64,000 nt of DNA from Halobacteria archaeon HArc-gm2 (GTDB taxonomy: Archaea > Halobacteriota > Halobacteria > Halobacteriales > Haloarculaceae), in assembly GCA_025517465.1 (NCBI GenBank), contig JAOPKE010000011.1:1-64000 (forward strand). Direction: 5' to 3'. The notes beneath the pieces were generated by a model. The model did no database searches. It worked only from the letters and a program-made list of their open reading frames with translations, and had not been told where the DNA came from. Positions 8,943 to 30,740 of the stretch are shown here, piece by piece; within the stretch, counting starts at the first letter, position 1; the number at the start of each line of letters is the position of its first letter. Position numbers and translations under genes: made by a program.

Positions 8943-9226
8943 CCGCTCGCTCCGAGGGCATCGACCGAGGGTCGCTGGCGAGACGACGTGTGGACGCTGG
9001 CCCTCATCAGTTTGGCTCGTTACTTATTCCGCTCCCCCACCGAGTACAACTGCCGGTTGACCATGCGATACCACCGGCACTTCCACCCACCCCCACACGA
9101 GTCCAGCCGTCGAGCCCCCCGCTCACGGCTGGCACTTCTCTCTTCGCGACGACCGATAGCGTCGTCTCCAGTGCCGTCGGTGCCCGGAATTGCCGTCGGT
9201 GCCCGGACTGCCGGCGGGGCCACGGG

Positions 9227-9682
9227 TTACTTCGGCGGAAGGTGCGCGACGCCGAGCCAGAAATCCTCGATGGCACGGGCCATCGTCACGAACGCTTCCG
9301 ACGTCGTCGGCTTCTCGAGATAGGCGTTCGCGTTGAGTTCGTACGATCGCGTGACTTCCGCCGCTTCTTCTGACGCGGTGAGAACGAGCACGGGGATCCG
9401 GCGCAACTCGGGTCGACTATCGAGTTCGGCGAGGATCTCGTTCCCGCTCGTTCCCGGAACGTGGAGGTCGAGGAGGATGATGTCGGGACGCGGGGCGTCC
9501 GTGTAGCCGTCGCGCTGGTGGAGGAAATCGAGCGCGTCGGCGCCGTCCCCGACGACCGAGACGGTCTCCGTGGCGTCGGTCGCCTCGAACGAATCGACGA
9601 ACTGCGATGCCGCTTCGGGATCGCTTTCCACGAGCAGGACGTCGAACGGACCGCTGTTTCCGCGTGAATTAGTTCGAGCCAC
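9227..9682 (-). CDS. Single-domain response regulator (CheY-like)
   Basis: A 151-residue receiver domain with no output domain. Phosphoacceptor Asp is in PDIILLDLHVPG, the acidic pair in LLVESDPEAA, Thr/Ser in VLVLTASEE and Lys in ANAYLEKPT. The DLHVPG variant and the C-terminal helix ending WLGVAHLPPK are typical of haloarchaeal Rcp1-like regulators, often cotranscribed with PAS-type kinases. No kinase is adjacent here; the nearest is 22 kb away. The region 8943-9226 upstream on the left holds no gene I can support. Confidence 0.9.
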   Translation of the reverse strand: MARTNSRGNSGPFDVLLVESDPEAASQFVDSFEATDATETVSVVGDGADALDFLHQRDGYTDAPRPDIILLDLHVPGTSGNEILAELDSRPELRRIPVLVLTASEEAAEVTRSYELNANAYLEKPTTSEAFVTMARAIEDFWLGVAHLPPK

Positions 9683-9780
9683 GATCGCTGTACCAGTACG
9701 TGTGAATGGCTATCTATCGACGTAACTCGTTTCCCAATTATGTTAGGTCGGCGTCCGGCGGACGGCCGGCTCACAGAGAT

Positions 9781-9817
9781 GAAGGAGGAAGCCCACGACT
9801 TCAGTCGTGAGTTGATG
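9781..9817 (+). mobile_element. Solo right-end relic of an IS200/IS605 (IS1341-type) element
   Basis: GAAGGAGGAAGCCCACGACT, then TCAGTCGTGAGTTGATG, carries the hairpin CACGACT-TC-AGTCGTG (9794-9809). From memory this closely resembles the conserved right end of haloarchaeal tnpB elements, which is also the 3' part of the element's guide RNA scaffold. No tnpA or tnpB remains, so this is a leftover end. It supplies the last codons and stop of the adjacent minus-strand gene. Confidence 0.65.
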
Positions 9818-10418
9818 ACTCGCCGACGAACCCGACGAACACCATGTCGTCGGTCTTCAGTTCGTACTCGACGCCGGCGGACAGCCGGGTGTAGTCGAAC
9901 GGCTCGGTGACGACGTGGAACCCGTTGGGCGTCTCTCGGCGGAGCAGGACCGTCGTGGAATCGGCGAGCGAGTCGGCGAACGCGTCGGCCTCGTCCGCCG
10001 AGACGTCGTCGAGGTCGAAGAGGAAGTTCGTCTCGTCTGCGCACGCGTCCGACTGGAGCACCGATACGAACTCGCTGTCGACCCGCTTGAACTTCCGGAG
10101 GACGTCCGTGTCGCCGTGGAAACGCATCTCCAGCCAGTCGTCGGTCCGCTCGCGGAGCCGGAAGAGCGCCGACGTGGTGTCCCGCGCGTTGACGCTGAGG
10201 TAGAGCCGGTAGCGCTCCTCGAACCGTGAGACCGCGTGGTCGAGTCGCGCGACCGTCTCGGGGAGTTCCTCGGCCTCCGCGACGATTTCACGGATCACCG
10301 GCTCCGAACTCGCGGTGAGGCCCTCGTTGTCCTTGGACCGGGCGATGGCCAGCAGGAGGTACACCCGTTCCGGGCCGAACTCGCAGTACTCCTGGAAGTC
10401 ATCGATCTCGATGGGCAT
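9801..10418 (-). CDS. Uncharacterised protein, primase-like motifs
   Basis: A 205-residue protein. I do not firmly recognise it. Visible features are YRLYLSVNARDTTSA (about residues 70-84), an acidic triad NFLFDLDDVS (about 132-141) and TPNGFHVVTEPFDYT (about 163-177). The hhDhD plus small-G-hHhhT order recalls the catalytic core of archaeo-eukaryotic primase-type folds, but this is weak inference. The last residues (SSTHD) and the stop are encoded by the IS relic at 9781-9817, so the C-terminus has been rewritten. Confidence 0.6.
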   Translation of the reverse strand: MPIEIDDFQEYCEFGPERVYLLLAIARSKDNEGLTASSEPVIREIVAEAEELPETVARLDHAVSRFEERYRLYLSVNARDTTSALFRLRERTDDWLEMRFHGDTDVLRKFKRVDSEFVSVLQSDACADETNFLFDLDDVSADEADAFADSLADSTTVLLRRETPNGFHVVTEPFDYTRLSAGVEYELKTDDMVFVGFVGESSTHD

Positions 10419-30667: not shown

Positions 30668-30740
30668 GCCCGGATGGTGTAGTGGCCCATCATACGACCC
30701 TGTCACGGTCGTGACGCGGGTTCAAATCCCGCTCCGGGCG
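30668..30740 (+). tRNA. tRNA-Asp (GTC)
   Basis: 73 nt. The acceptor stem is GCCCGGA with TCCGGGC, and discriminator G73. The anticodon loop is CTGTCAC between CGACC and GGTCG, with GTC at 30702-30704. The T arm is GCGGG-TTCAAAT-CCCGC. The variable region is short and I see no intron. CCA is not encoded. Its last 22 nt are duplicated at 30860-30881. Confidence 0.95.

What the first reader, a model, noticed from the sequence alone, without database searches (positions are those of the whole stretch)
9781..9830. Transposon right-end relic supplies the C-terminus of an adjacent gene
The hairpin CACGACT-TC-AGTCGTG with TTGATG is a haloarchaeal IS200/IS605-type right end without its transposon. The minus-strand gene at 9801-10418 reads through it, so its last residues (SSTHD) and stop come from the relic. 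This looks like domestication of an insertion scar, and the relic is also part of a former TnpB guide-RNA scaffold.
Basis: partly seen in the sequence, partly recalled or inferred. Interest (0 to 1): 0.6.

Follow-up and report, generated by a model that had tools for sequence, protein, structure and literature searches.

The report
Fused transposon ends lengthen a gene
In a salt-loving archaeon, a 45-base leftover made of the two fused ends of a jumping gene sits exactly on the stop codon of a neighbouring gene, giving its protein five extra amino acids and a new stop; similar leftovers lie on the stop codons of other genes in salt-loving archaea.

Summary
The insert is not a bare right end but a 45-bp unit (9775-9819) holding both ends of a TnpB (IS200/IS605, IS1341-type) element fused through one hairpin. 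Three full 1,398-bp copies in the same genome share its ends; fusing the ends of one copy in silico gives the window unit but for one substitution and one missing base. A same-genus genome has the empty site, without target duplication. The target TCAC is here the complement of G+TGA, the ancestral stop codon. Of 12 other genomes with the gene, 9 end at residue 200 and none has SSTHD, so SSTHD and the stop do come from the insert. Domestication is not supported: one genome, a variable C-terminus, no sign of function. Only the last hairpin of a guide-RNA scaffold could remain. Similar solo units are widespread in haloarchaea: 23 of 132 examined lie on an antisense TGA stop, against 83 of 4,248 other TCAC sites. 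Nearby 3'-flank sites are hit as often, so tolerance explains it. The kind is known ('terminal-only PATE', Dyall-Smith 2011); the recurrent S-x-T-H-D-stop tail I did not find in print.

The parts
9771..9774 (+). Insertion target TCAC (CTCAC with 9770). Its first three bases are the complement of the ancestral TGA stop codon of the minus-strand gene.
   Evidence: Empty site CTCAC-TCGCC in L004; all 132 strict units follow TCAC by definition of the set; the three full copies also follow TCAC
9775..9819 (+). 45-bp fused-end unit (terminal-only PATE): left-end foot + right-end hairpin + right-end terminus TGAC
9775..9797 (+). Left-end-derived part (AGAGATG-AAGGAGGAAGCCCACG, one base shorter than in the full copies); the junction lies somewhere in the shared AAGCCCACG
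9791..9819 (+). Right-end-derived part: GCCCACGACTTCAGTCGTGAGTTGATGAC
   Evidence: one substitution (G to A at 9810) against the full copies
9794..9809 (+). Hairpin, 6-bp stem with TTCA loop
9801..10418 (-). Gene of 205 codons, family of unknown function (no Pfam match)
9801..9819 (-). Tail taken from the unit: third base of Glu200, then SSTHD and stop TGA (9801-9803)
9771..9773 (-). Stranded ancestral stop codon TGA

Best explanation
An IS1341-type (TnpB) IS200/IS605 element, or its already fused end unit, inserted on the + strand just after TCAC. At this place TCAC is the complement of G+TGA, the stop codon of the minus-strand gene (empty site: shown). The unit now consists of the left-end foot joined to the right-end hairpin and terminus through their common palindrome (shown). 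The core was most likely lost by deletion between the two similar end palindromes (inferred). Because the target is the stop codon itself, the reading frame into the element is fixed: the last base of the unit restores the G of the penultimate codon, and the complement of the right end then reads Ser-x-Thr-His-Asp-stop. The gene was therefore lengthened by five residues and ended again at once (frame and tail shown), at little cost (inferred). It is a tolerated scar, not a demonstrated domestication.
For: Empty site with 0 bp between the flanks and no duplication in a same-genus genome. Three full copies in the own genome with the same two ends; fusion of the L019 ends equals the window unit but for one substitution and one missing base. 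9 of 12 other genomes end at residue 200, none with SSTHD. In G196/G231 the fusion of one full element's ends through its 23-bp repeat equals seven solo units letter for letter. Core deletion to 52-bp terminal-only units is described in Haloquadratum (PMC3119063, passages). Insertions are nearly absent from genes and common at gene 3' ends.
Against: In the own genome the direct repeat between the ends is only 7-9 bp, which makes deletion in place less certain there. No strain with a full element at this very site was seen. Nothing shows that the protein with its tail is made.
Confidence: 0.88

Rival explanations
1. The fused single-hairpin unit is itself mobile: a Y1 transposase (TnpA) cuts after TCAC and after TGAC and moves the 45-46 nt piece in trans, so the window copy landed already fused.
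For: Solo units are widespread, with identical copies in unrelated flanks (G196 four identical of five; seven identical over G196 and G231). All 13 genomes checked have a Y1 TnpA match. Both cleavage borders are kept. Dyall-Smith et al. report six strain-specific insertions of a 52-bp form and suggest mobility. The own full copies share only 7-9 bp between ends.
Against: Identical solo units are equally expected from core deletion of recently spread full copies, which exist in the same genomes. The window unit has the right-end type of the own full copies (TTGATGAC), rare elsewhere (2 of 132). No excision or fresh insertion of a solo unit was observed.
Confidence: 0.35
2. Domestication: the tail SSTHD was selected because it improves the host protein.
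For: The reading frame is intact and the one substitution in the tail-coding part keeps the residue (ACC to ACT, both Thr).
Against: Found in one genome only; homologues tolerate different ends (3 of 12 with other tails); the tail is the automatic result of any such landing (119 of 132 units read five residues and a stop in this frame).
Confidence: 0.04
3. The transposase actively prefers stop codons.
For: Stop sites exceed all TCAC sites (odds ratio 10.6) and all intergenic TCAC sites (4.2).
Against: The excess falls to 1.3 (p 0.42) against intergenic TCAC sites within 60 nt of a gene's 3' end and away from starts. No extended target motif beyond a mild preference for C or T at -5.
Confidence: 0.07

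Closest known systems
Terminal-only PATEs of Haloquadratum walsbyi (HqIRS46, ISHwa23; Dyall-Smith et al. 2011, PMC3119063, passages read)
   Same: About 50 bp, both ends of an IS605-type element fused through one palindrome, no target duplication, next to a short targeting oligonucleotide, proposed to arise by repeat-mediated core deletion.
   Different: Here 45-46 bp, TCAC target, another element lineage, spread over many haloarchaeal genera; here it lies on a stop codon and changes a protein end, which the passages I read do not mention.
IS1341-type (TnpB-only) IS200/IS605 elements of haloarchaea
   Same: Same target, left-end foot and right-end terminus as the three full copies in the own genome.
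   Different: No tnpB and only one hairpin instead of two.
Bacterial REP sequences with RAYT transposases (search listing only, and recall)
   Same: Short single palindromes related to IS200-like Y1 transposases.
   Different: Low copy number here (at most 10 pattern matches per genome), IS605-type left and right borders; linkage to a dedicated RAYT gene was not tested.

Membership tests
PATE, terminal-only form | No target duplication | tested here: met
   Empty site in L004, flanks adjacent
PATE, terminal-only form | No terminal inverted repeats, palindrome near the ends | tested here: met
   By inspection of 9775-9819 (AGAGATGA... / ...TTGATGAC) with hairpin 9794-9809
PATE, terminal-only form | Fused ends of an IS605-type element, too short to code for a transposase | tested here: met
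   Ends match three full tnpB elements; length 45 bp
PATE, terminal-only form | Core lost by repeat-mediated deletion | tested here: inconclusive
   Fusion through a 23-bp repeat exact in G196/G231; own copies share 7-9 bp only; no full element seen at this site
IS200/IS605 element | Carries tnpA and/or tnpB with a hairpin at each end | tested here: not met
   The unit has one hairpin and no gene
IS200/IS605 element | Cleavage and transposition by TnpA | not testable with these tools
   A Y1 TnpA gene exists in the own genome; activity unknown
TnpB guide-RNA (omega-RNA) scaffold | Scaffold from the tnpB 3' region to the right end, next to the guide | tested here: not met
   Only the 29-nt right-end part remains; a right-end hairpin as scaffold part is reported for H. 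salinarum (PMC12558985, passage); no Rfam match here
REP/RAYT | High copy number within a genome | tested here: not met
   1 unit in the own genome, at most 10 pattern matches per genome elsewhere
REP/RAYT | Conserved REP tag and a linked RAYT gene | not tested
   -

The most novel reading that the evidence does not exclude
The 45-46 nt single-hairpin units are a trans-mobilised mini-element of haloarchaea whose TCAC target and right end work together as a safe landing cassette: landing on the complement of G+TGA always restores the codon and adds S-x-T-H-D-stop, so gene ends become recurrent homes and the same pentapeptide is repeatedly appended to unrelated proteins.
Probability: 0.27. Interest if true: 0.6.

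Novelty: new member of a known kind. Interest (0 to 1): 0.4.

Why it matters
With an empty site, full parent elements and homologues, it shows how a tiny transposon remnant rewrites the end of a protein, and that this recurs: 22 further genes in the survey carry the same kind of tail. It gives a simple annotation rule (S-x-T-H-D-stop ends in haloarchaea may be transposon-derived) and a set of sites in which to ask whether 46-nt fused ends move by themselves.

Tried and rejected
Considered and rejected: chance palindrome (empty site and full copies rule it out); bare right end (the left-end foot is present); tail shared by homologues (0 of 12 genomes); active preference for stop codons (explained by tolerance near 3' ends); an unusually stable hairpin in the window copy (fold z -0.12).

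Across 124 distinct 50-nt units (target included) the stem pairs in 92.9% of cells against 90.2% after shuffling (maximum 91.0%), with 24 two-sided compensated changes, 37 one-sided changes still paired and 79 broken; relatedness was not controlled, so this is weak support only.

The wider pattern mixes solo units with right ends of other elements: five loci (L076, L078, L082, L085, L097) had tnpB 29-51 bp upstream, so its 79 of 391 genomes is not a count of solo units. The strict set of 132 needs exact TCAC and TGAC and drops sites with changes there; not all listed places were fetched, mostly such changed ones. Two pairs among the 132 are orthologous (L102/L107, L247/L248); neither is in the stop set. 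Of the 22 other stop-site ORFs, 20 were scanned with Pfam: 18 of 20 matched a family, L150 and L211 none; L219 and L239 were not scanned. In L073, L177 and some others the codon-position signal is weak. All 23 stop-site units have the five-residue stop against 96 of the other 109; I did not treat this as a result. The unit finds nothing in phage records. Not all papers could be read: PMC3119063, PMC12558985 and PMC10544981 by passages only, the others by search listing.

Full report
Observation. The hairpin CACGACTTCAGTCGTG is at 9794-9809, and the minus-strand ORF 9801-10418 (205 aa) ends inside it with ...FVGE-SSTHD-stop.

Empty site. A same-genus genome (G064, locus L004) encodes a protein 95% identical to the window's. 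Its DNA aligns over 3.6 kb at 93%, with gaps, the insert among them. Its site reads CTCAC-TCGCC; the window reads CTCAC-[45 bp]-TCGCC. Flank mapping gives 0 bp between the flanks in G064, so no target duplication. On the gene strand the end in G064 is GGC GAG TGA; in the window it is GGC GAG TCA TCA ACT CAC GAC TGA. The last base of the unit supplies the G of the penultimate codon, and the old stop lies stranded beyond the new one.

Homologues. The protein has no Pfam match. A match was found in 13 of 116 genomes of the family, the own included. Of the 12 others (loci of one genome merged), 9 end at the position of window residue 200 (4 with GE-TGA, 5 with DG-TAG) and 3 have other tails (G076, G026, G088). 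None ends in SSTHD. L001 and L002 duplicate two of these. The C-terminus is thus variable, which argues for tolerance rather than function.

Parent elements. The own genome has 12 tnpB matches and one Y1 TnpA gene. Three tnpB elements are near copies of each other (95.6-96.9% over 1.4 kb). Each starts after TCAC with AGAGATGCAAGGAGGA(A/T)GCCCACGGCTTCAGC(C/T)GTGGG and ends ...CAAGCCCACGAC(T/G)TCAGTCGTGGGTTGATGAC, 1,398 bp in all. The window unit has the foot of the left end and the hairpin and terminus of the right end. Against the fusion of the L019 ends it lacks one base and has one substitution. Its right-end type TTGATGAC is rare elsewhere: 2 of 132 solo units, the window included.

Wider family. 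With a pattern of fused ends (up to 3 mismatches, reversed control 0), 7 of 146 genomes of the own family have a match. A slightly looser pattern gave 79 of 391 genomes of the class, but these include right ends of other elements. With TCAC included in the pattern, 116 places in 56 of 170 genomes of family f4 and 57 places in 32 of 125 genomes of family f3 match (places counted by me from the listings). From the fetched loci I kept 132 distinct units with exact TCAC and TGAC; 1 has a tnpB match within 200 bp and 8 within 2 kb. Named plasmid examples include Natrinema salinisoli, Natrononativus amylolyticus and Haloplanus sp. GDY1. In the last, the deposited annotation ends a hypothetical protein inside the unit.

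Origin of solo units. In G196 and G231 a full element has a 23-bp direct repeat at its two ends. Fusing the ends through it gives 46 bp identical to seven solo units in these two genomes. This fits the repeat-mediated core deletion described by Dyall-Smith et al. 2011 for 52-bp terminal-only PATEs (PMC3119063, passages read). The same paper notes six strain-specific insertions of a 52-bp form and suggests that it may be mobile. In the own genome the end repeat is only 7-9 bp, so an already fused unit may have landed here. My data do not decide between the two; all 13 genomes checked have a Y1 transposase match.

Stop codons. TCAC is the complement of GTGA, so a unit landing antisense on a TGA stop preceded by G meets the gene in a fixed frame. 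In that frame 119 of 132 units read five residues and a stop, mostly SVTHD or SSTHD; 12 stay open and 1 differs. With a simple gene caller on joined flanks, 23 of 132 units (window included) lie exactly on such a stop, against 83 of 4,248 other TCAC sites in the same flanks. A first test on fewer loci without the gene caller gave 8 of 74 against 53 of 2,032. All 23 have five-residue tails, and blastp among the 23 ORFs listed no related pair. Pfam families were found for 18 of 20 scanned; the profile reaches its last position three residues before the junction in L151 (glucose dehydrogenase C-terminus) and L214 (Cmi2 C-terminal). The ratio of units to other available TCAC sites is 0.28 on stops, 0.21 at intergenic sites within 60 nt of a 3' end and away from starts, 0.09 near starts, 0.04 in other intergenic DNA and 0.003 inside genes. 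The first two do not differ (odds ratio 1.3, p 0.42). Gene ends are simply tolerant places; active preference is not supported.

Guide RNA. The right-end hairpin is reported as part of the guide RNAs of H. salinarum TnpB elements (PMC12558985, one passage). In the window only 29 nt of the right end are left and tnpB is gone, so a working scaffold is unlikely.

Verdict. This is a terminal-only PATE, a known kind, on the stop codon of a gene that it lengthened by SSTHD. Domestication is not shown. What I did not find in print is the recurrence of S-x-T-H-D-stop tails on unrelated genes; the searches were in an open-access library, and supplementary files, those of the 2011 paper among them, could not be read.

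Noticed in passing
9160-9230: A short GC-rich tandem repeat (GGAATTGCCGTCGGTGCCCGG-like) after the response-regulator gene is about 54 bp longer in G064 than in the window: a variable-number repeat (alignment).
   Followed up: no
L290, L291, L302, L303 (G196, G225): Left ends of the same family followed by AGGAATCC and other DNA without a tnpB match or right end in the fetched stretch: longer tnpB-less elements or decayed copies.
   Followed up: no
L073 (G015): A solo unit whose hairpin pairs a left-end-type G with a right-end-type T (CACGGC...GTCGTG), as expected if left and right arms were joined at the loop.
   Followed up: partly
L228 (G481:C450), L232-L235 (G482, G284): Lineage-specific solo units with other stems (CACGGC/GCCGTG, CACCCC/GGGGTG), which suggests lineage-specific families of fused ends.
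   Followed up: partly
30668-30740: A tRNA gene, the only Rfam match in the window.
   Followed up: no
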